DNA from: Paenibacillaceae bacterium
GTDB taxonomy: Bacteria > Bacillota > Bacilli > Paenibacillales > NBRC-103111
NCBI GenBank assembly: GCA_029256185.1
Contig: JAQSYI010000003.1
Span: 1 to 64,000 of the forward strand
Direction: 5' to 3'
Length of the DNA: 64,000 nucleotides
Made by a program: the position numbers and the translations under genes. Shown here piece after piece: positions 15,894 through 32,525 of the stretch. How positions within the stretch are numbered: the first letter of the stretch is position 1; each line of letters begins with the position of its first letter. Below the pieces are notes generated by a model. It saw only the letters and a list, made by a program, of their open reading frames with translations. It made no database searches and was not told the origin of the DNA.

Positions 15894-15895
15894 CA

Positions 15896-17789: not shown

Positions 17790-17814
17790 AATCCGGCTGC
17801 TGGCCGGATTTTTT
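17790..17814 (+). terminator. Terminator after the sensor kinase
   Basis: AATCCGG (17790-17796) pairs with CCGGATT (17804-17810), with six T residues overlapping and following the 3' arm. Confidence 0.8.
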
Positions 17815-17978: not shown

Positions 17979-19082
17979 TTGGAGCCAGTCAAATTGCCAT
18001 TAGCTAACCCCGTTATTACTTCTTATCCTACAACGACCGCCGTTTTGTCCATTACATGGACAGATCCTGCTTCCCAAGCGTGGTTTTACAATAATTTCAT
18101 CCAGCTATACAGCAGGGGGAGGGAATTTATCCGGACGGGCCTGGAGTTTTACAATGATTTTATCTATAAATTTTGTCCCCTTATCAGAAGGGAGTACCTT
18201 AACAGAGAAAGTCTGAATGTTCTGAACATGGATATTGCAGAATTGCTGGCAGGTTTCCTGAAGGCCGGAAAATATATTCTGATCCATCTGAACATGTTTC
18301 ATATCCGCGCCTACGCGTTTGCCTACAACCAAGTACAGGACTATCATGCCACTTTTATTTATGGATGCGATTGCAGGCAGCAATTGTTTTTTATCGCAGA
18401 TTTTTTCGAGGGAAAATACAGCCGGAAAACAGCTACGTTCGAAGAGGTCCGGCATGCTTATTCCTCCATGGTGCAGTTCACCATTGAGCATGATATCAGC
18501 GGGTTAAGCCTTCTGAGCCTTAATCCGAGCCCGTTCAATTTGTACGAGAACGAGAAATGGGTGTTCAGCCCTGAACTGACCGCTTCCCTGCTGCGGGATT
18601 ATCTGTCTTCGACAGACAGCTATGCTCTCTTGAATTTACCGAAGGACAATCTGATCTGCGGGATAGGAGTGTATGCGCTCCTAATGGAGAATTTGCAGCA
18701 GCTGGTCTTGGGAGAACTGTCCCTATCCCAGTTTCATATCAAGCCATTCCATATCAGTTGGAACCATAAGACTGTCATGCTGGCCCGGATCAAATATATG
18801 GGAGAAGCAGGCTGCCTGGAGGAGCATATCCGATTCTATGAGGAATATCAGGAAATCGTCAAGCTGTCCTTCATTATCCGGAGTATTGCCTTGAAAAGCT
18901 TCGTTACTCAAGATGCAGGACTGATGGGGAAAGTGATTGATCACCTGCACAGCCTGGTAGAGAAAGAGACGGTTATACTGCAGAAGCTGGCGGATCAAAT
19001 ACACGTATCCGGGCCGGAAGATTGCCGGTATAAGGACGTACAAGCTGCCGCGGCATTGGAAGCGAAGGGAGGCTGGAATTAA
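17979..19082 (+). CDS. BtrH-like N-terminal-domain protein, first gene of biosynthetic operon
   Basis: A 367-residue protein that I match only loosely to the BtrH_N/C39-like papain fold. It has an N-terminal NPVITSY segment, a conserved FYNNFIQLY helix, YILIHLNMFHI, then the paired strands YHATFIYGCD and LFFIADFF, where C39/BtrH proteins place their catalytic His and Asp. No cysteine is found at the usual nucleophile position in the N-terminus; the first is in KFCPL. It could therefore be a non-catalytic partner or use another residue. BtrH transfers a carrier-bound acyl chain to an amine. The TTG start at 17979 follows GGGAGGGGAG. It heads the operon, eight bases before asbC. Confidence 0.6.
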   Translation: MEPVKLPLANPVITSYPTTTAVLSITWTDPASQAWFYNNFIQLYSRGREFIRTGLEFYNDFIYKFCPLIRREYLNRESLNVLNMDIAELLAGFLKAGKYILIHLNMFHIRAYAFAYNQVQDYHATFIYGCDCRQQLFFIADFFEGKYSRKTATFEEVRHAYSSMVQFTIEHDISGLSLLSLNPSPFNLYENEKWVFSPELTASLLRDYLSSTDSYALLNLPKDNLICGIGVYALLMENLQQLVLGELSLSQFHIKPFHISWNHKTVMLARIKYMGEAGCLEEHIRFYEEYQEIVKLSFIIRSIALKSFVTQDAGLMGKVIDHLHSLVEKETVILQKLADQIHVSGPEDCRYKDVQAAAALEAKGGWN

Positions 19083-19089
19083 AACATCC

Positions 19090-20346
19090 ATGATCACAAT
19101 CAATGAACATTTATATACCGGAGAAGAAATTGAGGAATTATTCCATGAAATGGATCAATTGGAAGCCTACTCATCCTGCGGCGGGAAAATATTTATGGTT
19201 TGCAGCAACGAGCCGATTGTGGTGCTTGCGGCTGTTATGTATTTGCGGAGCCGAAACGCCTCCGTGCTGCTGCTGCATGGGGATACGCCCCATGAGACGG
19301 CGCTGGCGCTTGCCCGGGAAGCCGGATGCGATTATGCAGTGATCCGGTTGTACAAGCCCCTGGCGTTGCGGGAGGCAAAGTCCGGGCCGGCTGCATCCTC
19401 ATTCGCAGCTTCGCTGTACCAGTTCAGCTCGGGGACCACCGGCAGACCCAAGCTGATCGGGAGAGCATGGACCGAATTGGAGCTGGAGATTCAAATGTAT
19501 AACCGGGCTCTGAGAGCCAGTCCCGATGAGGTGCCGCTTATAATGGTTCCTCTTGCCCACTCCTTCGGGCTGATTACCGGTACATTGTCCGCATTGGAAC
19601 GAGGGGCTGCGCCCGTTGTCATCAGTGAGCGAAATCCCAAATTTGCAGCCAGGATACTGCGCTCTTATCCCAAATCCATCCTGTACACGGTTCCCTTCCT
19701 GCTGCATCTGTTGTGTTCCCTTCATGCAACTACAGTCAATCTGCATAAAGTGGTCTGTTCCGGCGCGCCTCTTCCCGAGTCTCTGTTCCGGCAGCTAAGA
19801 AGCCTATCGGTGTATCTCCTGCAACAGTATGGTTGTACGGAACTGGGCTGCATCTCACTAAGCCATGAGCCGGACTCTGTAGATGATGTGGGGAAGGTGC
19901 TGGATCATCTGGAAGCCGGCATTCAAGAGGTTGAGCCGGGATGGGGTGAGGTTGTGATCCATTCTTCACGGGGAAGCATCTGTACCAACGATATCGGCTT
20001 CCTGGACAGTGAAGGCCGTCTGCATATAAGAGGCAGGAAGGATGACTTGATCAATGTGGCCGGCCAGAAGGTAATCCCCGGGGAGGTGGAGGAGGTGATC
20101 TGCCTAATGCCGCAGGTCGCAGAGGCTCTTGTCTATGCCGGACGCCATCCTGTGTGGGGGCAGTCGGTCAAAGCGCTGGTGACGTTAAAGCAACCGGAGA
20201 TTCAGCTTCAGGATACGGCAATCCCTGACCATATCCGGTCATGGTGTCACGGGCAATTGCCGGCGTTTAAGGTTCCAGGGGAAATTCGCATCGTTGAGAT
20301 GCTGCCACGGACAGCCACGGGCAAAATTACCCGCAAAGGTCTTTAG
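19090..20346 (+). CDS. asbC: AsbC-like 3,4-dihydroxybenzoate-AMP ligase
   Basis: A 418-residue adenylate-forming enzyme. Petrobactin AsbC activates 3,4-dihydroxybenzoate and loads it on AsbD. The resemblance runs over the whole length: an N-terminal INEHLYTGEE...HEMDQLEAY segment, the P-loop SSGTTGRPK, VPLAHSFGLITG, the adenosine-binding QQYGCTELGC, and a C-terminal lid with DDLINVAG and the catalytic Lys in TATGKITRKG. It is shorter than typical acyl-CoA ligases, as AsbC is. The nearest ribosome binding site (AAGGGAGG at 19065) is 17 bases from this ATG, so an ATT codon at 19078 cannot be excluded as the start. Its TAG stop is supplied by the border of a palindromic repeat (20345-20391). Confidence 0.88.
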   Translation: MITINEHLYTGEEIEELFHEMDQLEAYSSCGGKIFMVCSNEPIVVLAAVMYLRSRNASVLLLHGDTPHETALALAREAGCDYAVIRLYKPLALREAKSGPAASSFAASLYQFSSGTTGRPKLIGRAWTELELEIQMYNRALRASPDEVPLIMVPLAHSFGLITGTLSALERGAAPVVISERNPKFAARILRSYPKSILYTVPFLLHLLCSLHATTVNLHKVVCSGAPLPESLFRQLRSLSVYLLQQYGCTELGCISLSHEPDSVDDVGKVLDHLEAGIQEVEPGWGEVVIHSSRGSICTNDIGFLDSEGRLHIRGRKDDLINVAGQKVIPGEVEEVICLMPQVAEALVYAGRHPVWGQSVKALVTLKQPEIQLQDTAIPDHIRSWCHGQLPAFKVPGEIRIVEMLPRTATGKITRKGL

Positions 20347-20391
20347 GGCGTGTCTGAAAACTCGCTTGAGGGCAGATTTCACACACGCCCT
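20345..20391. repeat. 47-bp deleted MITE-like palindrome on the asbC stop codon
   Basis: It begins TTAGGGCGTGTCTGAAAACT and ends CACACGCCCTAG. The first 30 bases match the left end of the element at 293-463, and the interior is lost. The TAG of its left border is the asbC stop codon (20344-20346). Confidence 0.75.
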
Positions 20392-20421
20392 AGGACCCCG
20401 GGCAGAGGAGGTATTGTGAAG

Positions 20422-20676
20422 ATGAAGCGCGAAGAGATGATTTCCAAGCTTGGGGATATCATGGTGAATCAGTTGGAGTTAGTGCTTGCCGGGCCGCTAT
20501 CCGAAGCGGACCGCTTGAATGAAGATCTCCATATCGACTCCATTATGGTGCTGCAGCTGATCGTTTATATGGAGGAGGTGTTCCAAGTATCCGTACCGGA
20601 AGAGGAGATTGATCCCTCCAACCTGCAAACGGTGGGGTCACTGGTCCGTTTTGTTGATAATCTGCAAGCCTGCTAG
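20422..20676 (+). CDS. asbD: AsbD-like aryl carrier protein
   Basis: An 84-residue acyl carrier protein. The phosphopantetheine attachment serine is Ser40 in DLHIDSIMVLQL. The sequence is close to petrobactin AsbD: a KxxDIMVxxxEL opening, LIVYMEE, VPEEEIDP and TVGSL near the end. It should carry 3,4-dihydroxybenzoate as a thioester from the preceding ligase to the AsbE-like transferase. GAGGAGG lies 10 bases before ATG 20422; GTG 20416 is an alternative start. Its stop codon is the TAG of another short palindrome (20673-20700). Confidence 0.9.
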   Translation: MKREEMISKLGDIMVNQLELVLAGPLSEADRLNEDLHIDSIMVLQLIVYMEEVFQVSVPEEEIDPSNLQTVGSLVRFVDNLQAC

Positions 20677-20700
20677 GAAGGGTTTGCAAACACGGACTAG
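20673..20700. repeat. 28-bp degenerate CTAG palindrome on the asbD stop codon
   Basis: CTAGGAAGGGTTTG / CAAACACGGACTAG. It has the same length, centre (TTTGCAAA) and CTAG borders as the perfect palindrome at 60484-60511, with several mismatches between arms. The left TAG is the asbD stop. Confidence 0.65.
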
Positions 20701-20730
20701 ACCAAAACAGCACAGGAAGGCGGCTATACG

Positions 20731-20991
20731 ATGAAGAGAGACGCAGTAATACAGTTTATCCGGGCATGCGTTGCCCATCTGACAGGCCGTCCCGAACTGG
20801 AGCATGTCCTTGATGAGCAGGGACAGCTTCAGGAATACGGGATTGACTCTGTGGCATTGATCAATCTGGTTGTGATGATTGAACAGAAATTCGCTATTTT
20901 CTACGAGGACGAGGAACTGATCGAGGAAAACTTCAGCTCCCTCCATATTGTAGCCGAGCGTCTGCTGGAGAAGCTGGGCGCCAAGATATGA
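20731..20991 (+). CDS. Second acyl/aminoacyl carrier protein
   Basis: An 86-residue carrier protein with the attachment site GIDSVALINL (Ser40) and acidic helices. It differs clearly from the AsbD-like protein next to it, so a different cargo is likely. The cluster also encodes an ATP-grasp ligase and a BtrK-like decarboxylase, so this or the carrier at 26767 may play the BtrI role and hold an amino acid. GGAAGG precedes the ATG. It ends in an ATGA overlap with the asbE-like gene, implying coupled translation with the condensing enzyme. Confidence 0.88.
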   Translation: MKRDAVIQFIRACVAHLTGRPELEHVLDEQGQLQEYGIDSVALINLVVMIEQKFAIFYEDEELIEENFSSLHIVAERLLEKLGAKI

Positions 20992-21935
20992 GGGAATGGG
21001 TCCATATCCATTGTTTGCTTGACTGTCTGAGACATATTCTGGTTGAGGCTGATATCCAGGATGTTCTTCCGCTTTATTTCGGTGTATGGGACACGCCGTT
21101 TGAGACCACTCCCGAAGGATTGCTGACCTACAGCTCTGCCAATCTGGACGGAGATATTTCTACGGAAGCCATGGAATTTCTCTATGGTACCCCCTTGACC
21201 TGCTGGTACAATTACCGGGGAAGCAAGCGGCAGAATCTGGAGCAATTGGACCGGCTGGCATCCGAAGGCGGACAAGCGGTCTATCTGCTCCCGCAATTGG
21301 ACTTGTATGAGCTTTCTTATCACCAAAGATGTTACAGGCAGATTCACAGACCTCATTATGTGATTGCTGCGAGAGGTACGGGGGGAGGGTGGAAGATAAC
21401 GGACCCTTCATTCGGATGGGAAGGGGAGATAGCAGAGGCAGAATTTGATGCCGCCTTTTGCAGCAACTCCCTGGGGGGCGGCTTCCTTGTTCATGCCGGT
21501 TCTTTGGTCAACCCGAAGCCTGAGCAGGCGGGGGCTTTCTTCGAAGAGGGTTGGAGCCGCAAGACTTACAGACTGTCCGAGGCCTTTCTCTCCCTGCTCG
21601 AACGCATGGGGCATCACGAACCGGAATTGATGGGCCGCTTGTCCGCCAATGTGGAGCAGCTTGGGATTCTGGCAAGCCGCAAGCAAAGCTACTTGCTGGC
21701 GTTCTCTTACTTCGATCCCCGTGCAGATTTGCAACGGGAACAGGAACTGGTCCATAACCTGCTCAAGGGCTGGCGTTCTGCCGCTTACGCCGCCATTCGA
21801 ATCGCGATTACCAAGGACCGGACTGCCCTGCAGCGTCTTGCTGCCAGAGTTGTTGCCTTGGGGGAGGAAGAAGAGGGGCTTAAGCAGGAATTATGGCATT
21901 CCTATGAGCGCTGGAGGCTGGTATTCCCAATATGA
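20988..21935 (+). CDS. asbE: AsbE-like condensing enzyme (DUF6005-type, papain-like)
   Basis: A 315-residue protein resembling petrobactin AsbE, which transfers 3,4-dihydroxybenzoate from AsbD to a primary amine of spermidine or its citryl conjugate. Shared features are the opening VHIHCLLDCLRHIL with candidate nucleophile Cys9, YFGVWDTPFE, GLLTYSS, and the paired RPHYVIAARG and WKITDPSFGWEG strands that supply the His and Asp of a papain-like triad. It is embedded by ATGA overlaps between the second carrier and the glycosyltransferase. With no AsbA/AsbB present, its amine acceptor must come from elsewhere in the pathway. Confidence 0.8.
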   Translation: MREWVHIHCLLDCLRHILVEADIQDVLPLYFGVWDTPFETTPEGLLTYSSANLDGDISTEAMEFLYGTPLTCWYNYRGSKRQNLEQLDRLASEGGQAVYLLPQLDLYELSYHQRCYRQIHRPHYVIAARGTGGGWKITDPSFGWEGEIAEAEFDAAFCSNSLGGGFLVHAGSLVNPKPEQAGAFFEEGWSRKTYRLSEAFLSLLERMGHHEPELMGRLSANVEQLGILASRKQSYLLAFSYFDPRADLQREQELVHNLLKGWRSAAYAAIRIAITKDRTALQRLAARVVALGEEEEGLKQELWHSYERWRLVFPI

Positions 21936-23281
21936 ATGAGAGCCGATTATTACGAATAGGTTGTGTAAACGGCCAGTCCAAACGGGTAAACGAAAGGGCA
22001 ATAGACGACCAATGGCTTGCTTATTTGGCAGAATCGGTGGATTTGGTCCGAATCTCCAGTTATGCGTTCATCAAGTTGTTCGGCGGCTCCTTCCGGCGCT
22101 GGTCGGAGCAATATCCCGCTTCTCTTAAAGAAACTGCCTGCCGGTTGGCTCAATTATGTGTACAGGAGCAGCTTGATGTCATTTATGTCAACTGGCCGGA
22201 GTTGATGCCTTACTTAATGGCGGCCAGGAATTATGGTCAATTGAAGGTGTCCTTCCTGTTAATAGCGCATTCGGTTGGCTCCGAGCAGTGGCTCAAATAT
22301 TGGATCAGTATTGCGCCTTTGCTGCAAAACCGGGATACGCTGCTGACCGGGACCTTCTCGTGCAAACAAGCGCTGCTTCATATTTCCTCCCTGTACAGCG
22401 CTGCTGTTGTCATTCCCTTATGCATCAGGCTAAACGAGGTGGACGGACTGCATGTATGCGGGCCGGCAGAAGACAACCAAACGCCGGCTTTACTCTCGAT
22501 CGGGAGAATCGAGGATGTCAAGAACATGGAGCTGCTTTTAGCGGCTTTTGCCCTGATCCGTCGGCATACGGCAGGTGCAAGACTGATCGTGGCAGGGGAA
22601 TACACAGGCTTCCACCCGGAACAGACGGCGTACTACCGGCAGCGGATCGAACAGTCTGTCCGGCAGCTTCATCTGGAGCAAAGCGTAGTCTTTACCGGCC
22701 CCGTGCAGGGAGCGGAGAAGGAGCATTGCTTCCGGCAGGCCGATCTGTTAATTAATCTGTCTACCGATCCCGGTGAAACCTTCGGATATAATCTGCTGGA
22801 GGCGAAGATGCGGGGGATTCCTGTGGTATGCACCCGTTGGAATGGATTCATGGAGCTTGTAGAAGACGGCGGGGATGGGGTGCTGATTGACTGCGAATGG
22901 ACGGGGGCAATGCCGTTTGTGGATGCCGTTCATGTTGCGGATGCCTGCATAGCCCTGCTCGGTGATCCGGAGAGGCGCCGGCTCATGAGCGGGAGGGCCA
23001 TTGCTCAGGCAAAAAAATATGATTACCGCCGCCTTATGCCGATTATCGTGAATACGCTGGAGGCCCGCAGAAGCTTGCCCTCCGAAACGCCGCCGCTGCC
23101 GTCCGATCTGTTGAATGCTTGTCCTTTGGGCAGTCTCGGCCATATTTATAACTTGGCCCTGCTCGCGGATACCGGCTGGAATGGGGAGACGCCGCTTTCA
23201 CTGCTGCAATCGCCTGTACAGTATACTTATCCGGAGTGGATGCAGCGGGTCAAACCCATTATCCGGCACTTCGCTCATTAG
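21932..23281 (+). CDS. GT4-family glycosyltransferase
   Basis: A 449-residue GT-B enzyme. The C-terminal donor domain has LLSIGRIEDVKN, the E-x7-E motif in ETFGYNLLEA and GIPVVCTRWNG, typical of GT4 retaining transferases using nucleotide sugars. No membrane anchor is seen. The gene overlaps the asbE-like stop by ATGA and is followed by a doubled hairpin repeat before the ABC exporter gene. In the context of a catechol pathway it would decorate the product or an intermediate, as glucosyltransferases do in salmochelin formation, but the acceptor is an inference. A cell-envelope role is the alternative. Confidence 0.82.
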   Translation: MNESRLLRIGCVNGQSKRVNERAIDDQWLAYLAESVDLVRISSYAFIKLFGGSFRRWSEQYPASLKETACRLAQLCVQEQLDVIYVNWPELMPYLMAARNYGQLKVSFLLIAHSVGSEQWLKYWISIAPLLQNRDTLLTGTFSCKQALLHISSLYSAAVVIPLCIRLNEVDGLHVCGPAEDNQTPALLSIGRIEDVKNMELLLAAFALIRRHTAGARLIVAGEYTGFHPEQTAYYRQRIEQSVRQLHLEQSVVFTGPVQGAEKEHCFRQADLLINLSTDPGETFGYNLLEAKMRGIPVVCTRWNGFMELVEDGGDGVLIDCEWTGAMPFVDAVHVADACIALLGDPERRRLMSGRAIAQAKKYDYRRLMPIIVNTLEARRSLPSETPPLPSDLLNACPLGSLGHIYNLALLADTGWNGETPLSLLQSPVQYTYPEWMQRVKPIIRHFAH

Positions 23282-23286
23282 CGGCC

Positions 23287-23414: not shown

Positions 23415-23427
23415 TTAGGAGGTTCCT

Positions 23428-25227
23428 ATGCAGAGTTTTAAACTTCTGAAGCAGCTGGCTCCATTGATCAACATCCGTTGGAGGCTCACCTTGCTGGCTT
23501 ATGTATGTACATTGGCGGGACTGGGCGCCACACTGCTGCAGCCTTTAATCTTCTCTTATCTGATTGACGAGGTATTGGTCAAGGGAAGGCGGGAGCTTAT
23601 CTCCACTTTGCTTCTGGGTTTTGCCGCGCTGGCCGTCATTTCCGTAACCACTACACTCATTCGAAGCACCTTGTTTCGCTATCTGGGGATACAGAATATG
23701 CTGGATTTGCGCAAGGTCCTGACCAAGCATATCCGCTCGATTCCCATGTACCAAATTGAGAAGGATGGAGTAGGCAAATACACGGCGCTGCTTGGTATGG
23801 ATACCAGCATCATGGGCAATTTTGTGAATCACGTGATGGTGGAATTGATCTCCAAAATATTCATGTCCGCCGCTGCCTTGGGTATGATGTTTATGCTGGA
23901 TTGGGGCTTTGCCCTCATGACACTGCTGTTTGTTCCGGTGCTTGCGTATATTCCCCGGCTTTTACGCAAACCCATGCTGCGTTACTCCTCTCATGTCCGG
24001 ACCCATAATGAGCAGATCGGAAGCCACTTGATCGAGAGCATGGAGGGCTCCAAGGAAATTCGGGCATTCGGGCTGGAGGGATGGGAGGAACGGCGCAATG
24101 ACGAGTTGTACAAGGATCTGGTGAAATCCAGCACCAAGGAGACCATGATGAATGTATGCTCCGGCCAACTCAGTATTCTCCCGATTACGGTGATTCTGAT
24201 GCTGATCTATTGGTATGGGAGCAACCGGGTGCTGGATCATCAAATGTCCATCGGGGTGCTGGTGGCCGCCGTGACTTACATGCAAAGCGCACTTAATCCC
24301 ATCAAGGATATGAACCATTACTTTGGAGAGATCCAGAGATCGCAGGTAGCGTTGCAGCGGATTACCGCATTCCTTCAACTCCCTGTGGAAACCGCTGCCG
24401 AATGCCGCCAGCAGGAGGAAGAGCCTTCCTCAGGCAGCCCGGGTGAAGCCATTTCCCGCTTCAGTGTGCCCGCCGTCCTCTGCACCGGCTTATATGCTGT
24501 CTACGACAAGATTCCCGTGCTTAGAGATGTGGATTTCACGGTCCAAAAAGGACAGATGGCCGCTTTTGTGGGACGCAGCGGTGCAGGGAAATCCACATTG
24601 TACAAGATTCTGATGGGATTCTCACCGTATGAGAGCGGGGAAATCCATGTGGACGGAATACCGTTGAGGGAAATGAGCCGCAGCCGGTACCGTTCGCAGA
24701 TCGGAATTGTATTTCAGGAGCCCTTCCTGTTCAAGGGGACCCTGGGCGAAAATATCCGCATTGGCAATTTGGAGGCGGGCCCGGATGAGGTATCGGAGGC
24801 AATCCGCCGTGCCCATCTTCATGATCTGGTGGCCTCGTTGCCGGATGGACTGGATACCCCCCTTGACCACAAGGGCTTTCAGTTATCCGGCGGGCAAAAG
24901 CAGAGAATCTCCATCGCCCGCGTCATGCTGCAGAAACCGCAAATTTTGCTGCTGGATGAGCCCACTTCCGCCCTGGATCAAGAAACGGAAAAAGAAGTGA
25001 TGGAGGCTCTATTGGAACTGACGGCCGGGAAAACCACCCTGATCTCCGCCCATCGGCTGGGGATGATCCGCCGGGCAGATATGATCTATATGATGAAGCA
25101 TGGTGAAATTGTGGAATCGGGAACTCATGGGCAGCTGATGAGCCAGCGGGGGGACTATTATGATATGACAGTTAACGGATATGCCCAGGACCTGGAGGAA
25201 CAACGAAATATGGAAGTGATCCGATGA
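23428..25227 (+). CDS. ABC exporter, fused membrane and ATPase domains
   Basis: A 599-residue half-transporter of the MsbA/LmrA type. A six-helix transmembrane domain covers about 1-320. The nucleotide-binding domain has Walker A FVGRSGAGKST near residue 380, signature LSGGQKQRISIARVML, Walker B ILLLDEPTSALD and the switch His in SAHRLG. It would work as a homodimer at the membrane. Its place inside the biosynthetic operon, overlapping the next gene by ATGA, points to export of the product. AGGAGG lies 8 bases before the ATG, right after the doubled hairpin repeat, which could set its expression apart from the upstream genes. Confidence 0.92.
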   Translation: MQSFKLLKQLAPLINIRWRLTLLAYVCTLAGLGATLLQPLIFSYLIDEVLVKGRRELISTLLLGFAALAVISVTTTLIRSTLFRYLGIQNMLDLRKVLTKHIRSIPMYQIEKDGVGKYTALLGMDTSIMGNFVNHVMVELISKIFMSAAALGMMFMLDWGFALMTLLFVPVLAYIPRLLRKPMLRYSSHVRTHNEQIGSHLIESMEGSKEIRAFGLEGWEERRNDELYKDLVKSSTKETMMNVCSGQLSILPITVILMLIYWYGSNRVLDHQMSIGVLVAAVTYMQSALNPIKDMNHYFGEIQRSQVALQRITAFLQLPVETAAECRQQEEEPSSGSPGEAISRFSVPAVLCTGLYAVYDKIPVLRDVDFTVQKGQMAAFVGRSGAGKSTLYKILMGFSPYESGEIHVDGIPLREMSRSRYRSQIGIVFQEPFLFKGTLGENIRIGNLEAGPDEVSEAIRRAHLHDLVASLPDGLDTPLDHKGFQLSGGQKQRISIARVMLQKPQILLLDEPTSALDQETEKEVMEALLELTAGKTTLISAHRLGMIRRADMIYMMKHGEIVESGTHGQLMSQRGDYYDMTVNGYAQDLEEQRNMEVIR

Positions 25228-26789
25228 GCGGATTAATCGATTTCTTTGAGTCAACCGGACGCAAGGACAGGGGAATCAGCTATGAGGCAGGAGGAAGCTG
25301 GCATCACATCACTTATGATGCCATGGTCTGCAAGGCCTCCCGTCTGGCCGCACGTTGGCTCAACCATACCGGTGGACGGCGCTGCATCTGCCTGATCCGG
25401 ATGGAGACGGGACCCGATTATCTGCAAGCGCTGATGGCCGTTGTGCAGATGGGCAGCATCCCCGTTCCGCTCCATGCCAACTGCCGGGAAGAAGAGATTC
25501 GCCAAACCGCCGATTGGCTGGAGGCGGAGATCATCATTGCAGACGCTGCCAAGCTGAAGCAGTGGCCGGCGGGGTGGATGCCGGCAAGGCTTATTGGCCT
25601 GGATGGCCGGACTGGTGACAGAATCGATTGCAGCACAATGGATAGCGTCGGGAGCGATGACAGTGCTGCCGGCCCGGCGCCCGAATGGACAGAGCGCGTC
25701 TATGAGCCGCCGCCTGAAACGGCCGTCATCATGATGTCCTCCGGCTCTACCGGCAGGCCCAAGGCGATTATGCTAAGCGCCGACAATCTCCTGACCAATG
25801 CGGCGGCCATCGCCGAATATACCGCCCTTACTGACCGAGACCGGGTATTGATCTGCAAATCGTTGGGTTATCTCTCCACCATTACAGGAGAATGGCTGCT
25901 TGCTCTTCAGACAGGCGCCGACATCTGCCTGAACGGACCGCTGTTTCACCCCCTGCAGCTGGTAACCCGGATTCGCAATGCCGGAGCGACCTTCGTATGT
26001 GTGGTTCCATCGATGATTATTCCATTGCTGAAATCCGGAAAATGGGACATAGCCGAGCTGGCAGCCTTGCGCCGAATGATCATCATCGGAGGGGCGGTAT
26101 CCCCGGATATTCTGCTGGAGCTGCAAGCAAAGCTGCCCCATGTTGAGCTCATCCCTTCATATGGCCTGACTGAAGCTGCTCCCAGAGTCACCTATCTGCC
26201 CGCTGCAATGCTCAAGCGGATACCCGGCTCGGCCGGAAGGCCAATCCGCAATGTCCGGGTAGAGATACGTCAGGATGGTGAACTGCTTCCTGCGGGAGAA
26301 ATCGGGGAGATTACAGTGTCCGGCCCCAATGTCATGCTTGGCTACTATCGGGACCGGGAGCGGACAGACCGCGTACTGCAGCCCTATGGACTGAAGACTG
26401 CGGATATGGGCTATCTGGACGAGGACGGTTTTTTGTTTATCACCGGGAGAGCCGACCGTGCCGTGAATATTGCCGGACAGACCGTTTACCCGGAGGCCGT
26501 CGAGCATATCTTGCTTGCCCATCCTGAGATAGAGGAGGCGGCGGTTTGCGCCGTTTCCGATCCGGTATGGGGCAGCAGGCTGATCGCTTTTGCGGTGCCC
26601 TGCTCCTTACAGACGCCGACGAAGCCGCTGGAGGATTACTGCCAGGCCAAGCTGCCGCCCGCCCTAAGACCCAAGCGCATCATTTATAAAACCAGCTTGC
26701 CCAAAACGGCTTCCGGCAAGCCGGACCGCACACAACTGGCGGAAGACGCCGCTAAGGAGGAGCAGGATGCCGCTTCAACATCAGGATAA
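25224..26789 (+). CDS. Acyl/aryl-AMP ligase (ANL family)
   Basis: A 521-residue adenylate-forming enzyme with P-loop MSSGSTGRPKAI near residue 173, A5 motif PSYGLTEAAP, A7 motif LKTADMGYLDEDG, A8 ITGRADRAVNIAG and the catalytic Lys in KTASGKPD. It is full length, unlike the AsbC-like enzyme. Its 3' end overlaps the carrier-protein gene at 26767 by 23 bases, so it probably charges that carrier. The substrate cannot be read reliably: an aryl, fatty or amino acid are all possible. Confidence 0.85.
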   Translation: MSGLIDFFESTGRKDRGISYEAGGSWHHITYDAMVCKASRLAARWLNHTGGRRCICLIRMETGPDYLQALMAVVQMGSIPVPLHANCREEEIRQTADWLEAEIIIADAAKLKQWPAGWMPARLIGLDGRTGDRIDCSTMDSVGSDDSAAGPAPEWTERVYEPPPETAVIMMSSGSTGRPKAIMLSADNLLTNAAAIAEYTALTDRDRVLICKSLGYLSTITGEWLLALQTGADICLNGPLFHPLQLVTRIRNAGATFVCVVPSMIIPLLKSGKWDIAELAALRRMIIIGGAVSPDILLELQAKLPHVELIPSYGLTEAAPRVTYLPAAMLKRIPGSAGRPIRNVRVEIRQDGELLPAGEIGEITVSGPNVMLGYYRDRERTDRVLQPYGLKTADMGYLDEDGFLFITGRADRAVNIAGQTVYPEAVEHILLAHPEIEEAAVCAVSDPVWGSRLIAFAVPCSLQTPTKPLEDYCQAKLPPALRPKRIIYKTSLPKTASGKPDRTQLAEDAAKEEQDAASTSG

Positions 26790-27033
26790 AGAGTGGGTTA
26801 TTCGTGAAACCGCCGGAGTGATAGCCCGCATCACCCGCAGAGATCCTTCTGCCATACAACAGGGCCACTCCCTCGGGAATGACCTTGATATTGATTCGCT
26901 CCAGTTGCTGGAATTGATCGCACAATTGGAAGAAACCTTCGGATTTGAGGTGGAGCCGGAGGAACTGGAGCCGGAGCACTTCCGCTCGGTTCAGGCCGTG
27001 ACTCATTATGTGGAAAGGAAGCTTCGGATATGA
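26767..27033 (+). CDS. Third carrier protein
   Basis: An 88-residue carrier with attachment site DLDIDSLQLLELI (Ser44) and a final helix like those of aryl and peptidyl carriers. It is preceded by AAGGAGGAGCAGG inside the 3' end of the upstream ligase gene and ends in an ATGA overlap with the PaaK-like gene, so three genes in a row are translationally coupled. It is likely to be loaded by one of these two adenylating enzymes. Confidence 0.88.
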   Translation: MPLQHQDKEWVIRETAGVIARITRRDPSAIQQGHSLGNDLDIDSLQLLELIAQLEETFGFEVEPEELEPEHFRSVQAVTHYVERKLRI

Positions 27034-28157
27034 CCTCATCAATGGCTGAGCGGCTGGACGGATTATACTCCTTTCTGACGGAAACATACCCTTATTACCG
27101 GCCCCTGTCCGGAAGGAGGGAAGGGTTCTTTTCCCTGCCCTTTTTGAAGAAAGCCGCCATTGGGCGCAACAGGGAGCTGTTCGCGCATCCTTTTTTGCAG
27201 CCGGAATTGGAGACCTATACTTCGGGAACAACCGGCATTCCCTTCCGGTGTGTAAGAACGCGGCAGGAACAGCTGGCATTGTCCATGGCCCTCTTCCGCC
27301 AGAGAATTCCGTGGGGGCTTCCGGCAAGGCACCGGCTGCTGCTGCTCAGCAACCGCATGACCGATGAGCCGCATATGCTGCTCCATTATGAGAAGCTGCT
27401 TCAGCAGCAAGAGCCCCACCTGATACAAGGAAGGTCCGCTGCTCTGTACGCTTTGGCTGTCCATTGCCTGGAGGCTGGATTCAGACCCGCCAAGTCTCTG
27501 AAGCTGGTGCAGAACTGGGGGGAGCCGATTCAGCCGGGGCACGCAGCAGTCATTGAAGAAGCGTTCGGGGTCCCTTACACGGATTATTACGGGCTGGAAG
27601 AAATCTGGCTGATTGGGTATAGCGATTCCAGCGGAAGGCTGCGCATAGATGAACGGTCGGTTTATGTGGAAATCATCGATCCCGAGCGTCAACAACCCCT
27701 GCTTCCCGGGGAATACGGGGAGATTGCCGTAACGTCGTTTGTCATGCAGAGTCTGCCTTATATCCGCTACCGGACAGGTGATATCGGAAGGCTGCTGCGG
27801 GATGAACAATCCGGGGCCAGCTATCTGGAATTGCTGCCGGTGCGAACCGCCCATATCCGCTTGCCCGACCGGAATGTGCATGCTTCGATTTTCCGCTACC
27901 TGGACAAGTTCTTCCATACCTTAGCTATGGAGCAAGGGGTAATCCAGTACCAGCTCGTGCAGGAGCAATATCATGTGTTCCGGCTGCTGCTGCTGGTGAA
28001 TGCCGCACTGAATACAGAGGAGTTGGAGAGGAAGCTGGGGCCTATGCTAAGCCGATATTTATCGGCCCCCGTGGAAGTCCGGGCTGAGATCGTTCAGCAT
28101 ATTCCACCGAATCCGGCAAACGGAAAGACCCTTTCGTTTATAAGTCTGATATCTTGA
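27030..28157 (+). CDS. PaaK/CapK-like adenylate-forming enzyme
   Basis: A 375-residue member of the phenylacetate-CoA-ligase branch of the ANL superfamily. It shows YTSGTTGIPF (P-loop, about residue 67), a conserved NWGEPIQPGH helix, DYYGLEE and SLPYIRYRTGDIGRL. It is shorter than PaaK and its C-terminal lid is compact. Such proteins adenylate aryl acids or act in thioester chemistry in natural-product clusters. It follows the third carrier by ATGA overlap and may share it. Three different adenylating enzymes for three carriers in one operon suggests at least two different acyl building blocks. Confidence 0.75.
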   Translation: MTSSMAERLDGLYSFLTETYPYYRPLSGRREGFFSLPFLKKAAIGRNRELFAHPFLQPELETYTSGTTGIPFRCVRTRQEQLALSMALFRQRIPWGLPARHRLLLLSNRMTDEPHMLLHYEKLLQQQEPHLIQGRSAALYALAVHCLEAGFRPAKSLKLVQNWGEPIQPGHAAVIEEAFGVPYTDYYGLEEIWLIGYSDSSGRLRIDERSVYVEIIDPERQQPLLPGEYGEIAVTSFVMQSLPYIRYRTGDIGRLLRDEQSGASYLELLPVRTAHIRLPDRNVHASIFRYLDKFFHTLAMEQGVIQYQLVQEQYHVFRLLLLVNAALNTEELERKLGPMLSRYLSAPVEVRAEIVQHIPPNPANGKTLSFISLIS

Positions 28158-28176
28158 AGGGCAGAGGGGGAGCCAG

Positions 28177-29121
28177 ATGGCCGTAACCTGGCATAATGAA
28201 CAAGTCGTTAATATCGCTCCTACTGAATGCGGCGCCTCCTGTGTGATGACGGCGCTGAATATGTTGGGGAAGGATACTGCTTTTTTCTTGCTGGATTATT
28301 GGAATATCAGCTATAAATCCGGGCTGCTGTTCTCCAGCAAGTCCTTGCGACTCTTAAACCTGGACTATATGTACGGAGTCCGGTTCGATTATTCCTTGGG
28401 AGATTGGGCCGATATAGAGGAATGGCTTGATGAGCGGCTTCTGCTCATTGTCGAATGCAGGGCATCGCGGCTTGCCTTTTTCTCCCGAGAAAATCTGGTG
28501 CTGGAGGACAACAACGTCATTAGCCACTACATTCTGCTCCATGGACGTGAAGGGGGCAGCCGTTCATTCCTGGTAACTGATCCTATTGCGGGCTATGAGG
28601 GCGCCATGACCTGGGAAGAGCTGAGCAGGGCCAGTGTGGAGCCCGGAAGAGTGCTGGCATTCCGCTTGAAGGATTCCCATTCCTCCTTCTTGCAGCCGCC
28701 TGGGAAGGAACTGTTCTGCAGTGCGGTTGCCCGCAATGGCAAGCTGTATAAGTCCATGGCCATCAGCTCTTTTGCCCGGGATCTGGAGCGTTCGCTCCAG
28801 TGGACGCCGGATAAACGGAACAAGTGGCTGGACTCCAACAAAATTACCATTACTTCGATCATTAAGCTTCGGAACGCGGTGTGGAATTGCTGCTGCAAGA
28901 CGGATCTGTTTGACGGAAGGCACAGAGCGGAAGGGGCGGCGCAGGTTGCTCAGATCACCAAGACATGGACTTTAATCAATTTTCTGTTAATTAAATACGG
29001 CCGCAAGCCTGAAGGGGAGCTGGTACATGCGCTCACCGGCAAGTTGGAGCTTGTCAGGCGGCAAGAGCTTGATTTTCTCAACAGTCTGGAGGAATTAGCC
29101 CATGATCTCGCCACAGATTAA
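28177..29121 (+). CDS. C39/BtrH-like cysteine acyltransferase
   Basis: A 314-residue papain-like protein. The start shows the C39-type nucleophile motif TECGASC (Cys18), then ISHYILLHG with the candidate His and SFLVTDPIAGYEG with the candidate Asp, so the triad looks complete. Lacking a membrane exporter domain, it is unlikely to be a bacteriocin leader peptidase. In this operon it more likely forms or breaks an amide bond, as BtrH and AsbE do. GGGGGAG precedes ATG 28177. Its last 20 bases overlap the asbF-like gene. Confidence 0.72.
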   Translation: MAVTWHNEQVVNIAPTECGASCVMTALNMLGKDTAFFLLDYWNISYKSGLLFSSKSLRLLNLDYMYGVRFDYSLGDWADIEEWLDERLLLIVECRASRLAFFSRENLVLEDNNVISHYILLHGREGGSRSFLVTDPIAGYEGAMTWEELSRASVEPGRVLAFRLKDSHSSFLQPPGKELFCSAVARNGKLYKSMAISSFARDLERSLQWTPDKRNKWLDSNKITITSIIKLRNAVWNCCCKTDLFDGRHRAEGAAQVAQITKTWTLINFLLIKYGRKPEGELVHALTGKLELVRRQELDFLNSLEELAHDLATD

Positions 29122-29977
29122 CTTGTGCACCATTTCGTTCCGCCATGAATTGGCCTCGTTTGGCGACTTGATCCACTTTTCCGCTTCCGCCGGTTTTGCC
29201 GGAATAGAACTGTGGGGAGTGCATGCCAGGGCGCTGCAGGAGCGCTCCGGTCCGGAGCTTGCCTCTCTGCTATCCGGTATGAAAGAACGGGGTCTCGGGA
29301 TCTCCATGATCAGCCATTATATAAGCGGTATCGGCGCCGCTGTGGACCGCGGACATATTCTCCGGCAGGGGGAGAGACTGGTGGCGGATGCGCTTGTTTT
29401 CGGAGCGGACAAAATCCGGATATTCGCCGGGAATCAAAGCAGCCGGAAAGCATCAGCGGAAGAGTGGAGGCGGGCGTTCAGCCAGATCGGGGACTTGGCG
29501 GAGCTGTGCCGGGAGCACAATATAAAGCTCGTACTTGAAACACATCCCATGACGCTTGCCGATTCCACTTTCTCCGCACTGATGATTCTGGAAGAGGTCT
29601 CTCACCATAATTTGGCGGTCAATGCCGATCTGCTGCATTTGTGGGAGGCAGGCGATGATCCCCTGGCCGCTATCGAAGCGTTGTCTCCTTATACGGTGTA
29701 TTATCATTTCAAGAATATCAATTGCCGGAGCAAGCTGAGCGTATTTGAGCCAGCCAATATTTATTCCCCCGGCGGCACCAGAGAGGGGATTGTTCCCCTC
29801 CGGGAAGGGATGCTGGACTATCGGCCGCTGATCGGGAGAATCCGGGAATTGAAGGAGCCGCAACCGTTCGAGGCCTCCATTGAATGGTTCGGTCCGCGTC
29901 CTTACCTGCATTTGGCAGACGAACTGATTTGGTTGAAGGAGCTGTTCTCTTGCTCGAGGGGGGAGGTAGGAGTATGA
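29102..29977 (+). CDS. asbF: AsbF-like 3-dehydroshikimate dehydratase
   Basis: A 291-residue TIM-barrel enzyme of the xylose-isomerase-like family (PF01261). It is strongly similar in pattern to petrobactin AsbF, which converts 3-dehydroshikimate to 3,4-dihydroxybenzoate: LCTISFRHELASFGD, GFAGIELWGVHA, DKIRIFAG, LVLETHPMTLADS, NADLLHLWEAGDDP, YYHFKNIN, VFEPANIY and ASIEWFG all align by eye. The Glu/His/Asp metal ligands in these motifs are retained. It anchors the prediction that the pathway uses 3,4-catechol rather than the usual 2,3-isomer. The ATG at 29102 lies inside the previous gene, and its stop overlaps the ATP-grasp gene (ATGA). Confidence 0.93.
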   Translation: MISPQINLCTISFRHELASFGDLIHFSASAGFAGIELWGVHARALQERSGPELASLLSGMKERGLGISMISHYISGIGAAVDRGHILRQGERLVADALVFGADKIRIFAGNQSSRKASAEEWRRAFSQIGDLAELCREHNIKLVLETHPMTLADSTFSALMILEEVSHHNLAVNADLLHLWEAGDDPLAAIEALSPYTVYYHFKNINCRSKLSVFEPANIYSPGGTREGIVPLREGMLDYRPLIGRIRELKEPQPFEASIEWFGPRPYLHLADELIWLKELFSCSRGEVGV

Positions 29978-31248
29978 ATCACTGCGGAGGGATGTCTCAA
30001 TGGACCGGAATAACGGAAAGCAAGGTGTGGTATTCCAATTTGAATTGGGAGCAGCGGGTCCGGGCAGGACTGCGGCTGCCGCAGGTTCACAACAAAGCCG
30101 GGGAAGCGGTCATCCGCCAAATGGACGTGCACCAGATATACTTGGCCGATCCTGAAGATACGGTCATCTTGAAGGAGCAGCCCGATGAGGAGTTTATCGA
30201 TTATGTCGAGGGGCAGCTCCAGAGTCTGCCCAGGCTGAGAATCGGTCTTCCCGGCCATTTCCCGGAGGAGTTGGCGAATCGGCTGGCGGTTCCTTACCTG
30301 GTTGACCGGGAAGAAGCGGATTTTCTCCGGAATCTGAATGCCCGATGGATTGGCCCCGATCCCGATTTGGCCTGGCGGCTGAACAACAAGCTGGAGACGC
30401 GGCTGTTGTGCGAACAGCATCACATCGATCTTAGCGACGGATATATCTGCCGGAACCTCAAGGAATTGAACGCCGCCTATAAGAGCCTGAGCAAGCGGTA
30501 CCCTAATAACCGGCTTGTCTTGAAGACGGAATTCGGTTCGTCAGGGAAAAATATGATGCATATTTACAAGCCTGGCGACTTTGAACACATCGAAAGCCTG
30601 TTGGCTCACCGCTCCGGCGGCAGGGACTTCTCCATTTCCATAGAACGTTGGCATGAAGCGGAAAAGACCATGTCGGCGCAGCTCTTCATCTGGAGCGGCC
30701 ACGCTCGTCTATTGGCAGTAACGGAACAGTTGACTAATGAAGTGGGGGTCTATAAGGGCAGTATTCTGAATCCGGCATGGCCGGATGCGGTGCGGGAGAG
30801 GTATGAGGAGCAGTTGAATTTAATAGGCAGCGTTCTGGCCCGGATGGGCTATGAAGGAGTGATCGGGGTGGACTCCATTCTGGACAAGCAGGGGCGCTTG
30901 CTTCCGGCAATCGAGTTCAACGCGAGATTAACCCTGGTCACCTATTTGCTGAAGATCATCAACAAACTTATTGAAGGAGGCTTCCCGAGCATCCGCAACC
31001 AGTATTATGATCTCAAGCCCGGGCAGTTCCTGTCATTCTCCCCATTCCTGGCCGGGGCGCGGGCCGCAGCAGCCACCGCCAAGGGAGAGCGGGAATGTTT
31101 TTTTGTTTATGGGTTTCATGTGAGCAAGGAAGATGAGAGCTCCCGGCTTTGCCGGATTTTCATTCTGTACTGGGGCATAGACCCGGCTCACCTGCAGCAT
31201 ACCAAACAAGCAGTGGAGCAGTATATATCGCAGACCGGGAGAGGATGA
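29974..31248 (+). CDS. ATP-grasp ligase (BtrJ/PGM1-like)
   Basis: A 424-residue ATP-grasp enzyme. The ATP-binding part is visible as NRLVLKTEFGSSGKNMMHIY (about residues 178-197), then SIERWHEAEKTMSAQLFIWSG and the metal-binding IGVDSILDKQGRLLPAIEFN, where Asp and Glu-x-Asn are the Mg ligands. The overall layout recalls BtrJ of butirosin biosynthesis, which loads glutamate onto a carrier protein, and the PGM1-type peptide ligases. The start is ATG 29974 (GGGGGGAGGTAGGAG upstream), overlapping the asbF stop. A carrier-loading or amide-ligase role fits the neighbouring carriers and decarboxylase; the amino acid is unknown. Confidence 0.78.
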   Translation: MNHCGGMSQWTGITESKVWYSNLNWEQRVRAGLRLPQVHNKAGEAVIRQMDVHQIYLADPEDTVILKEQPDEEFIDYVEGQLQSLPRLRIGLPGHFPEELANRLAVPYLVDREEADFLRNLNARWIGPDPDLAWRLNNKLETRLLCEQHHIDLSDGYICRNLKELNAAYKSLSKRYPNNRLVLKTEFGSSGKNMMHIYKPGDFEHIESLLAHRSGGRDFSISIERWHEAEKTMSAQLFIWSGHARLLAVTEQLTNEVGVYKGSILNPAWPDAVRERYEEQLNLIGSVLARMGYEGVIGVDSILDKQGRLLPAIEFNARLTLVTYLLKIINKLIEGGFPSIRNQYYDLKPGQFLSFSPFLAGARAAAATAKGERECFFVYGFHVSKEDESSRLCRIFILYWGIDPAHLQHTKQAVEQYISQTGRG

Positions 31249-31253
31249 CAGGG

Positions 31254-32525
31254 ATGAACATGATGAACGGACTGTTTCTGTCACCGGTTGCAATGGAGCA
31301 GACGGCCAGGCAATGTGCGAAGAAGTATGGGACCCCCTTGTTTATGTATAATAAGGACCGGCTGGAAGAGTCGTACACCCTGCTCCGGCAATCCCTGCCG
31401 AAGGAGCTTGTCATCTATTATTCCATGAAGGCCAATCCGAATCCTCGTATTATCCGCTTCATGCTGGAGGCAGGCTCGCCGCTTGAGGTTGCTTCAGCAG
31501 GGGAATACAGGAAGGCGCTTCAGGCGGGGGCAGAGGCCCATAGCATTGTTTTTACAGGCCCCGGCAAGAGCAGGGCGGAATTGGAGGAATGCATAGCCGG
31601 AGGAGTCTATGCCGTCAACGCGGAGTCCGAGCAGGAAATTAGGATAATCGGCGAAATTGCCGCCAGCCAAGGTAAGAAAACTTCTGTCCTGCTCCGGGTT
31701 AATCTCCATGTGAGCCGTCACGGCTCCCGTATGGCATCGGGAGGTTATGCAAGCCCTTTCGGGATTGATGAGGACCAGCTTCCCGGTGTAATAGCAACGA
31801 TTATGTCCATCCCTTCCATCCAACTCATTGGGCTGCATACCTATCTGGGGACCCAGAACTTCAATATCGAATTTTACAGGGAGTCCATTGCTTTGATGTT
31901 CAAGCTGTGCCGGCGCATAAAAGACGAATACCGGCTCCCTCTGCATACTTTGGGCCTGGGAGGCGGATTCGGCGTTCCCGCCTTCGCGGGTGATCATCCG
32001 TTTGCTGTGGAAGAGTTCGGACGTATTGCGGGTGAACAAATAGCAGAGAACAGGGATTTGGGGCTGGAGCGGATTTTCATCGAATCGGGGAGGTTCCTGA
32101 CCGCAGAGATGGGGACCTACATCACATCTGTTCTATATGTGAAGCAATCCTACGGCAGACGCTTTGCCATTCTGGATGGAGGCACCCATCACCGGGCGTT
32201 CTCCACTCTTATGGGGCGGAGCTTCAAACAAACGCTGCCGGTCACCGTTCTTCCCGTAAGCGGAGGCAGCTATCAGGAGGGAGGATCAGCCGGGACAGAG
32301 GTCTACACGCTGGCAGGCAAGCTGTGCACACCGTCGGATGTTCTCCATAGCGGCGCGCAACTGAGGGCGGGGCTTGCAGAAGGCGACCTTATTCTATTTC
32401 CCTCCGCCGGGGCCTATGGCTTGTCATGCGGCAATGTTCATTTTCTCTCCCATGGAATTCCGCGGGAAATTCTTGTTTCTGGAAGAGACGGAGAGAAGAG
32501 GGAAGATATCAGCTGGTTAGGATAG
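31254..32525 (+). CDS. PLP-dependent decarboxylase, fold III (BtrK/DapDC-like)
   Basis: A 423-residue alanine-racemase-fold decarboxylase. The PLP lysine is Lys59 in YYSMKANPNP. Further family motifs are VASAGEYRKAL, the TLGLGGGFGVP phosphate loop, FIESGRFLTAEMGTYI and the late GAYGLSCGNVHFLSH. The ESGR form and overall length are closer to BtrK, which decarboxylates a carrier-bound glutamate to GABA, than to LysA. Free diamino acids are the alternative substrate. It is the last gene of the operon. ATG 31254 has GAGG 9 bases upstream; ATG 31245 overlaps the previous stop and is also possible. No terminator follows; a new promoter (site C) lies just behind it. Confidence 0.85.
   Translation: MNMMNGLFLSPVAMEQTARQCAKKYGTPLFMYNKDRLEESYTLLRQSLPKELVIYYSMKANPNPRIIRFMLEAGSPLEVASAGEYRKALQAGAEAHSIVFTGPGKSRAELEECIAGGVYAVNAESEQEIRIIGEIAASQGKKTSVLLRVNLHVSRHGSRMASGGYASPFGIDEDQLPGVIATIMSIPSIQLIGLHTYLGTQNFNIEFYRESIALMFKLCRRIKDEYRLPLHTLGLGGGFGVPAFAGDHPFAVEEFGRIAGEQIAENRDLGLERIFIESGRFLTAEMGTYITSVLYVKQSYGRRFAILDGGTHHRAFSTLMGRSFKQTLPVTVLPVSGGSYQEGGSAGTEVYTLAGKLCTPSDVLHSGAQLRAGLAEGDLILFPSAGAYGLSCGNVHFLSHGIPREILVSGRDGEKREDISWLG

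What the first reader, a model, noticed from the sequence alone, without database searches (positions are those of the whole stretch)
17979..32525. Unrecognised hybrid biosynthetic operon: petrobactin asbCDEF parts joined to butirosin-type carrier chemistry
Seen: 14 genes on one strand, most with ATGA overlaps, encoding AsbC-, AsbD-, AsbE- and AsbF-like proteins together with two more carriers, an ATP-grasp ligase, a BtrK-like decarboxylase, two further BtrH/C39-like proteins, two more adenylating enzymes, a glycosyltransferase and an ABC exporter. Known: AsbC-F make, activate and transfer 3,4-dihydroxybenzoate, and BtrI/J/K/H build and transfer a carrier-bound amino acyl chain. Inference: the operon makes a new 3,4-catecholate amide, perhaps glycosylated, without modular NRPS or PKS enzymes. 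I know of no described cluster with this combination.
Basis: partly seen in the sequence, partly recalled or inferred. Interest (0 to 1): 0.93.

Follow-up and report, generated by a model that had tools for sequence, protein, structure and literature searches.

The report
NRPS-free catecholate assembly operon
A Paenibacillus-like bacterium carries fourteen genes in one row, thirteen of them found in the same order in a genome of another family, that likely build a new catechol-tipped and possibly sugar-bearing small molecule without the giant peptide-making enzymes usually needed, which would make it a sister of the antibiotic closthioamide's unusual pathway.

Summary
The gene row is real: 14 co-directional genes, 17979-32525. 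Profile and structure-library searches support AsbC/D/E/F (3,4-dihydroxybenzoate supply, loading, transfer), a BtrK-like decarboxylase, an ATP-grasp-like ligase, three carriers, two more adenylating enzymes, a GT4 glycosyltransferase and an ABC exporter. ATGA overlaps are at 5 of 13 junctions, not most. It is not petrobactin: the genome has no IucA/IucC match. Thirteen genes recur in identical order in G399 (another family), 12 of them in Fictibacillus norfolkensis; a sister layout occurs in Paenibacillus and Cohnella. Eight of nine related loci add a dehydrogenase/aminotransferase pair predicted to make an amino sugar or aminocyclitol; the window and G399 lack it. Predicted folds of g11 and g01 match CtaG (closthioamide) and CcbD (celesticetin); g05 and g11 keep a Cys-His-Asp triad (17 of 17 sequences), g01 lacks the Cys. 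Best reading: a closthioamide-like, NRPS-free carrier pathway with a 3,4-catechol cap and probably a GABA-like linker (inferred). Acceptor, sugar and role are unknown; no convincing Fur box was found. New variant of a known kind; nine literature searches showed no description.

The parts
17790..17810 (+). terminator-like stem-loop between yesM and the operon
   Evidence: consensus match only; 13 such sites in the region against a shuffled mean of 14.6
17886..17914 (+). weak promoter-like site upstream of g01
   Evidence: 9 of 12 consensus matches; 12 such sites in the region against a shuffled mean of 11.6, so only a candidate
17979..19082 (+). g01: papain-fold (CcbD/CtaG/AziU-like) protein without the catalytic Cys; accessory, role unclear
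19090..20346 (+). g02: AsbC-like adenylating enzyme, predicted to load 3,4-dihydroxybenzoate on g03
   Evidence: PRK08308 425.5 bits; SSGTTGRP motif
20422..20676 (+). g03: AsbD-like aryl carrier protein
   Evidence: PRK07639 93.4 bits; DSI carrier motif
20731..20991 (+). g04: BtrI-like carrier, predicted partner of g13/g14
   Evidence: PP-binding 34.1 bits; DSV motif; a homologue lies directly upstream of the g13-type gene in 9 of the 10 family hits above 160 bits
20988..21935 (+). g05: AsbE-like (DUF6005) predicted papain-fold transferase with Cys9-His123-Asp139
   Evidence: DUF6005 187.7 bits; triad; the six-row A5 profile hits CtaG chains at E 0.00034
21932..23281 (+). g06: GT4 glycosyltransferase
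   Evidence: Glycos_transf_1 87.9 bits
23428..25227 (+). g07: MsbA-like ABC exporter
   Evidence: ABC_membrane and ABC_tran; TIGR02203 333.8 bits, below its cut-off of 602
25224..26789 (+). g08: second adenylating enzyme, acid unknown
   Evidence: AMP-binding 191.9 bits
26767..27033 (+). g09: third carrier protein
   Evidence: PP-binding 41.9 bits; DSL motif
27030..28157 (+). g10: short PaaK-like adenylating enzyme
   Evidence: AMP-binding 33.3 bits; NF045666 81.5 bits against 300; TSGTTGIP motif
28177..29121 (+). g11: second triad-bearing papain-fold transferase, CtaG-like fold (Cys18-His117-Asp135)
29102..29977 (+). g12: AsbF-like predicted 3-dehydroshikimate dehydratase
   Evidence: PDB 3dx5 E 5.7e-61; ten active-site positions (roles recalled) kept in 7 of 7
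29974..31248 (+). g13: ATP-grasp-like ligase, predicted to load an amino acid on g04
   Evidence: weak ATP-grasp profiles below cut-off; 44% and 35% orthologues in two related operons
31254..32525 (+). g14: BtrK-like PLP decarboxylase, predicted to act on g04-bound glutamate
   Evidence: PDB 7ru7/2j66 E 3e-80

Best explanation
The 14 co-directional genes likely encode an NRPS-free carrier-protein pathway that would make a 3,4-dihydroxybenzoate-capped amino-acyl amide, working like closthioamide biosynthesis rather than like petrobactin biosynthesis. Predicted order: g12 makes 3,4-dihydroxybenzoate from 3-dehydroshikimate; g02 loads it on g03; g13 loads an amino acid (glutamate by butirosin precedent) on g04 and g14 decarboxylates it there to a GABA-like unit; g05, through its Cys-His-Asp triad, moves the catechol acyl group from g03 onto the amine of the g04-bound unit, as CtaG is proposed to move 4-hydroxybenzoate in closthioamide. 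g08/g09/g10 supply a third acyl or adenylated unit; g11 (same triad) makes a further amide bond, probably releasing the chain onto an amine, as CcbD and BtrH do with amino sugars. g06 adds a sugar and g07 exports the product. Shown here: gene order, family membership, conserved active-site positions, predicted folds, conserved gene pairs. Inferred: every substrate, the order of steps, the division of work between g05 and g11, and the product. The end use (antibiotic, metallophore or signal) is open.
Against: No thioamide synthetase (CtaC/AANH) or CtaJ-like gene was recognised in the 14, so the closthioamide likeness covers the assembly steps only. g14's best NCBIfam model is an exosortase-associated decarboxylase, below cut-off. 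A 17-row g05/g11 profile did not find CtaG by sequence. Fold matches do not prove reaction or substrate. g05 itself was not modelled. L091's g05 lacks the second Cys (the triad Cys is kept). L088 has no g05 on its contig, and L093 has no detectable g04. Six of nine related loci have neither an ATP-grasp gene nor GT4, so those steps are not universal.
Confidence: 0.6

Rival explanations
1. The product is chiefly an acylated amino sugar or aminocyclitol (butirosin or hygromycin A style): the chain is put on a sugar amine, and the window's operon takes that amine from elsewhere in the cell.
For: 8 of 9 related loci carry a GFO/IDH/MocA dehydrogenase and a DegT aminotransferase between AsbD and g04 or g05; the best PDB match of the L077 aminotransferase is named glutamine--scyllo-inositol transaminase, followed by sugar aminotransferases; a glycosyltransferase gene is found with both layouts (GT4 in layout II, UDP-type in 5 of 6 loci of layout I); CcbD was solved with an amino sugar substrate (7yn2 title) and BtrH acylates an aminoglycoside (PMC10318531 passage).
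Against: The pair is missing from the window and from the G399 operon. The best aminotransferase match elsewhere in the window's genome is a partial 36% hit (E 3.3e-23), and in G399 36% (E 3.1e-59), against 57-89% among the related operons. The window's genome is about 94% complete, so an unassembled copy is possible.
Confidence: 0.35
2. It is a siderophore or other metallophore operon: the catechol serves to bind iron or another metal.
For: AsbC-F supply the iron-binding unit of petrobactin; DUF6005 has been tied to siderophores by gene context (PMC10318531, passages); a FecB/FecCD/ATPase import set and a DUF364 heavy-metal-chelation gene lie about 6.5-13 kb upstream in the window.
Against: No Fur-box-like site clearly above shuffles in front of g01 (38 of 500 shuffles reach its best) or of the seven related operons scanned (113-468 of 500); G399 and G035 were not scanned. 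No uptake gene inside the operon. Among the flanking genes of relatives that were annotated importers of oligopeptide type (L091) and glycine-betaine type (L080) were seen but no FecCD or siderophore-binding family; many flank genes were not annotated. A single 3,4-catechol would be a weak chelator. The control was poor: a petrobactin-type locus (L086) also lacked a clear Fur box at its first gene (385 of 500), though its asbC upstream region had a candidate (1 of 500).
Confidence: 0.3
3. It is a petrobactin-type NIS operon whose citrate-joining genes lie elsewhere.
For: AsbC, AsbD, AsbE, AsbF likeness.
Against: No IucA/IucC match in the window's genome, nor in G399, G026 or G049; G037 and G035, which have both, keep the IucA/IucC genes at another site. 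In AsbC, AsbE and AsbF trees the petrobactin-type rows form their own group, without the window.
Confidence: 0.04
4. Two separate functions share one transcript: a 3,4-dihydroxybenzoyl amide pathway, and a GABA-type decoration of a cell-surface glycan by g13/g14/g06/g07.
For: TIGR03098 (exosortase-associated ligase) is among the profile matches of g08, and TIGR03099 (exosortase-associated decarboxylase) is the best NCBIfam match of g14, both below cut-off; GT4 and MsbA-like exporters also serve envelope glycans.
Against: The 13 genes stay together in the same order in two families, and GT4 also occurs inside petrobactin-type operons near asbE/asbF (L086, L113).
Confidence: 0.1

Closest known systems
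Closthioamide (cta) pathway, Ruminiclostridium cellulolyticum
   Same: free-standing carriers for an aryl acid and for an amino acid, an acyl-CoA-synthetase-like loader, an ATP-grasp loader, a decarboxylase, and a papain-fold CtaG transferase; no NRPS
   Different: 3,4-dihydroxybenzoate by AsbF instead of 4-hydroxybenzoate by CtaA; BtrK-type decarboxylase; no AANH thioamide synthetase; adds a third carrier, two more adenylating enzymes, a glycosyltransferase and a second triad-bearing transferase
Petrobactin asbABCDEF and rhodopetrobactin/methylolanthanin operons
   Same: AsbC, AsbD, AsbE (DUF6005) and AsbF homologues
   Different: no IucA/IucC synthetases and thus no citrate step; window proteins fall outside the petrobactin-type groups in three trees
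Butirosin AHBA side-chain genes btrI/J/K/H
   Same: carrier, ATP-grasp-like gene, BtrK-like decarboxylase, transferases of BtrH-type fold
   Different: no oxygenase or other hydroxylation gene among the 14; catechol acid added; the butirosin gene set itself is partly recalled
CcbD of celesticetin biosynthesis
   Different: works beside CcbZ with its PCP domain; about 12% identity
[quoted passage not shown]
   Same: joins an aromatic acid (catecholic, recalled), an aminocyclitol (cf. the extra gene pair of related operons) and a sugar; start of the abstract of PMC10949010 seen
   Different: cinnamic-type acid; other enzymes and producer (recalled); not compared by sequence

Membership tests
Petrobactin-type NIS siderophore operon | IucA/IucC (AsbA, AsbB) synthetases | tested here: not met
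   0 matches in the window's own genome, about 94% complete
Petrobactin-type NIS siderophore operon | AsbC, AsbD, AsbE, AsbF | tested here: met
   best profiles or structures are the Asb ones; the models for AsbC and AsbD are matched below their equivalog cut-offs
AsbF 3-dehydroshikimate dehydratase | metal ligands and active-site residues of 3dx5 | tested here: met
   E146, D176, H202, E261 and six further positions kept in 7 of 7; positions by the alignment, roles recalled
AsbE / DUF6005 | DUF6005 profile | tested here: met
   g05 187.7 bits against a cut-off of 25; g11 only 13.2 bits, below cut-off, so g11 is not filed there
CtaG/CcbD/BtrH papain-fold transferases | Cys-His-Asp triad in g05 and g11 | tested here: met
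   17 of 17 g05/g11-type sequences
CtaG/CcbD/BtrH papain-fold transferases | Cys-His-Asp triad in g01 | tested here: not met
   no Cys in residues 8-35 in the seven distinct proteins of A4/A7 with letters there; Asp141 kept in all rows, His123 in all but one gapped row
BtrH_N (PF14399) | Pfam profile above cut-off | tested here: not met
   g01 and g11 no match, g05 14.8 bits against 29.7
Butirosin-type carrier cassette | BtrK-type decarboxylase | tested here: met
   273 bits to BtrK against 178 for the next PDB protein; NCBIfam's best is TIGR03099 below cut-off
Butirosin-type carrier cassette | BtrJ-type ATP-grasp ligase that loads BtrI | tested here: inconclusive
   only weak ATP-grasp matches; no BtrJ sequence available; conserved neighbourhood with g04-type carriers and BtrK-type genes
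Closthioamide-type (non-canonical thiotemplate) pathway | aryl-acid carrier, amino-acid carrier, loaders, decarboxylase and CtaG-fold transferase without NRPS | tested here: met
   as gene families and fold only; roles of cta genes from PMC6772006
Closthioamide-type (non-canonical thiotemplate) pathway | AANH thioamide synthetase CtaC | tested here: not met
   no such domain among the 14 proteins
Any of these | chemical product | not testable with these tools
   needs culture, labelling and mass spectrometry

The most novel reading that the evidence does not exclude
A new natural-product class spread over Paenibacillus, Cohnella and Fictibacillus relatives: glycosylated 3,4-catecholate pseudo-peptides made on free-standing carriers by papain-fold amide synthases, in which the amino-acid-loading module is exchangeable (ATP-grasp plus BtrK decarboxylase in the window, G399 and Fictibacillus; a seryl-tRNA-synthetase-like amino acid:carrier ligase in three loci; an adenylating enzyme plus BtrK-like decarboxylase in Cohnella cholangitidis) and the amine acceptor differs between subtypes.
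Probability: 0.5. Interest if true: 0.78.

Novelty: new variant of a known kind. Interest (0 to 1): 0.63.

Why it matters
Pathways that join amide bonds without NRPSs are easily missed: the petrobactin genome-mining rule read here (PMC11317620 passages) asks for IucA/IucC, so it would pass this operon over. If right, the operon links petrobactin's catechol unit to closthioamide logic, offers a testable function for two poorly described papain-fold families (DUF6005 relatives and the g11 family), and comes with nine further loci with swapped modules for testing how carrier-to-carrier amide synthases choose partners.

Tried and rejected
Petrobactin variant: rejected (no IucA/IucC, separate tree groups). 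Fur regulation as evidence for a siderophore: looked for, not convincing, with a weak control. g01 as a working Cys transferase: rejected for lack of Cys. A sequence profile of all 17 g05/g11 rows against PDB found only designed helical chains, whereas the six-row g05 profile found CtaG weakly. The single-sequence genome scan with g11 found nothing; the six-row profile scan found 7 loci but uses two short patterns and will miss others: G035 and G399 were found only by genome searches. A protein-database search with g11 found, beside the window's own protein, one relative on a 30-kb contig that could not be fetched (P0002; probably the same contig holds a 59% g13 relative, P0004). hhalign of g01 against g05 and g11 was weak (9.1% and 25.6%). 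Empty-site test: in G025 and G026 orthologues (85-86%) of the downstream sugar-transport genes have other genes upstream, which suggests insertion or rearrangement but gives no clean empty site. MIBiG could not be queried. Literature: nine answered searches in an open-access library; no description of this operon was seen in the listings, several of which were capped or mostly off-topic.
Full report
Observation. ORF listing and junction check confirm 14 genes on the + strand, 17979-32525. Overlaps: ATGA at 5 of 13 junctions, any overlap at 7 of 13, the other six gaps of 5-146 bases. Profiles: g02 AsbC-like, g03 AsbD-like, g05 DUF6005 (AsbE), g06 GT4, g07 ABC exporter, g08 and g10 adenylating enzymes, g04 and g09 carriers. 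g12 matches AsbF 3dx5 at E 5.7e-61 and g14 BtrK at E 3e-80; the best NCBIfam model of g14 is TIGR03099, below its cut-off. g13 has only sub-threshold ATP-grasp matches. g01 and g11 have no family above cut-off. g02 and g03 score below the equivalog cut-offs of their best models, so they are relatives and not certified members.

Not petrobactin. The window's genome has no IucA/IucC match (2 of 14 control genomes rang). Of the eight genomes with related operons five were tested: two have IucA/IucC and three do not. In G037 they sit in a separate petrobactin-type operon on another contig, and in G035 about 1.1 Mb away. Trees of AsbC (22 rows), AsbF (22 rows) and AsbE (20 rows) put the petrobactin-type rows (12, 11 and 12) in one group (91/98, 99/96 and 100/100) with the window outside it; the row L124 is a long branch in two trees, and in the AsbE tree the window and L091 are long branches.

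Related operons. Two genome-contig scans with g11 were made: the single sequence found none, a six-row profile found seven loci: two contigs of a Paenibacillaceae MAG (L088, L094), Paenibacillus oryzisoli (L089), Cohnella mopanensis (L090), Fictibacillus norfolkensis (L091), Paenibacillus sp. N3.4 (L092) and Cohnella cholangitidis (L093). Genome searches added G035 (L081/L082) and G399 (L138/L139): g11 matches in 5 of 104 family genomes and 4 of 398 class genomes, the window's own genome counted in both; two of the four class matches are weak (E about 1e-6) and were not looked at further. That makes nine related loci in eight genomes. Gene content by tblastn is (earlier listings).

Two layouts. 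Layout II (window, G399, F. norfolkensis, MAG L088) has GT4, g08, g09 and g10. G399 has the window's 13 genes g02-g14 in identical order. F. norfolkensis has 12 of the 13 in the same order (no exporter), plus two extra genes after AsbD, and a PPTase-family gene downstream. L088's contig ends after g10. Layout I (L089, L090, L092, L093, L094, G035) shows no GT4, g10 or ATP-grasp gene and has a different adenylating enzyme in 6 of 6; a UDP-type glycosyltransferase lies nearby in 5 of 6, not in L094. Eight of nine related loci have a GFO/IDH/MocA dehydrogenase and a DegT aminotransferase after AsbD; the window and G399 do not. PDB matches of these two proteins of L077 fit amino-sugar or inosamine formation but do not choose between them. 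The loader of the amino acid varies: ATP-grasp plus BtrK-like in the window, G399 and L091; a class-II seryl-tRNA-synthetase-like amino acid:carrier ligase in L089, L090, L092; an adenylating enzyme plus BtrK-like gene in L093. In L088, L094 and G035 no loader of these kinds was recognised; the first two are contigs that end soon after. The three largest neighbouring ORFs checked (1811 aa in G399; 1416 and 1268 aa in G037) are carbohydrate-related proteins, not NRPSs.

Carrier-loader unit. Among the 10 family hits of g13 above 160 bits (L002-L011), a g04-type carrier lies directly upstream in 9 (not in L009), and a BtrK-type gene is next downstream in 5. This supports g04-g13-g14 as one unit.

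Known parallel. The closthioamide paper (PMC6772006, text parts 1 and 2 of 3 read) describes a thiotemplated, NRPS-independent pathway with loaders CtaD (ATP-grasp) and CtaI, carriers CtaE and CtaH, decarboxylase CtaF and peptidyl transferase CtaG. Several of these roles are proposals in that paper. BtrK's action on BtrI-bound glutamate is stated in PMC7857480 (passages). DUF6005 is used as the AsbE model in PMC11317620 (passages) and called papain-like and possibly siderophore-related in PMC10318531 (passages). PMC13251462 was seen as passages only, PMC2922099 as passages, PMC5596346 as passages, PMC10949010 as the start of its abstract in a listing.

Role. No Fur-box-like site clearly beat shuffles in front of g01 or the seven related operons scanned; the control locus was ambiguous. 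A metal-import region lies about 6.5-13 kb upstream in the window without any shown link; among the annotated flank genes of relatives no siderophore-uptake family was seen, but many were not annotated. The biological role therefore stays open. Verdict: a real, conserved operon family that I found described nowhere in the searches made; new variant of a known kind.

Noticed in passing
window 4807-11436: FecB-like binding protein, ABC ATPase and FecCD permease on the minus strand, then CobW-type GTPase, ABC ATPase, DUF364/DUF4213 'putative heavy-metal chelation' protein and a methyltransferase on the plus strand: a metal-handling region upstream of the operon.
   Followed up: partly
window 47890-49800: An ORF that reads like a threonyl-tRNA synthetase (judged by eye) about 15 kb downstream. 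Catechol-bearing obafluorin is known (recalled) to hit this enzyme and to be paired with a resistant copy; whether this is a second copy was not checked.
   Followed up: no
L086, L113 (G063, G069): Petrobactin-type operons of this family that carry a GT4 gene 44-45% identical to g06 near asbE/asbF, with IucA/IucC and a lysine/ornithine monooxygenase: possibly glycosylated mixed siderophores.
   Followed up: partly
L107, L108, L109 and L006, L011: Carrier - ATP-grasp - BtrK-type triads in neighbourhoods without any Asb genes recognised: a wider set of carrier-bound amino acid decarboxylation modules.
   Followed up: partly
window 14241-17779 and 32604-36177; L136, L137: The operon lies between a YesN/YesM-type pair and LplB/YtcP/lipoprotein-type sugar-transport genes; in two same-genus genomes the orthologous transport genes (85-86%) have other genes upstream, as if the operon had been inserted.
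   Followed up: partly
family-wide search with g01: Relatives of g01 occur in 36 of 104 family genomes, up to eight per genome; whether most of them also lack the Cys was not checked.
   Followed up: partly
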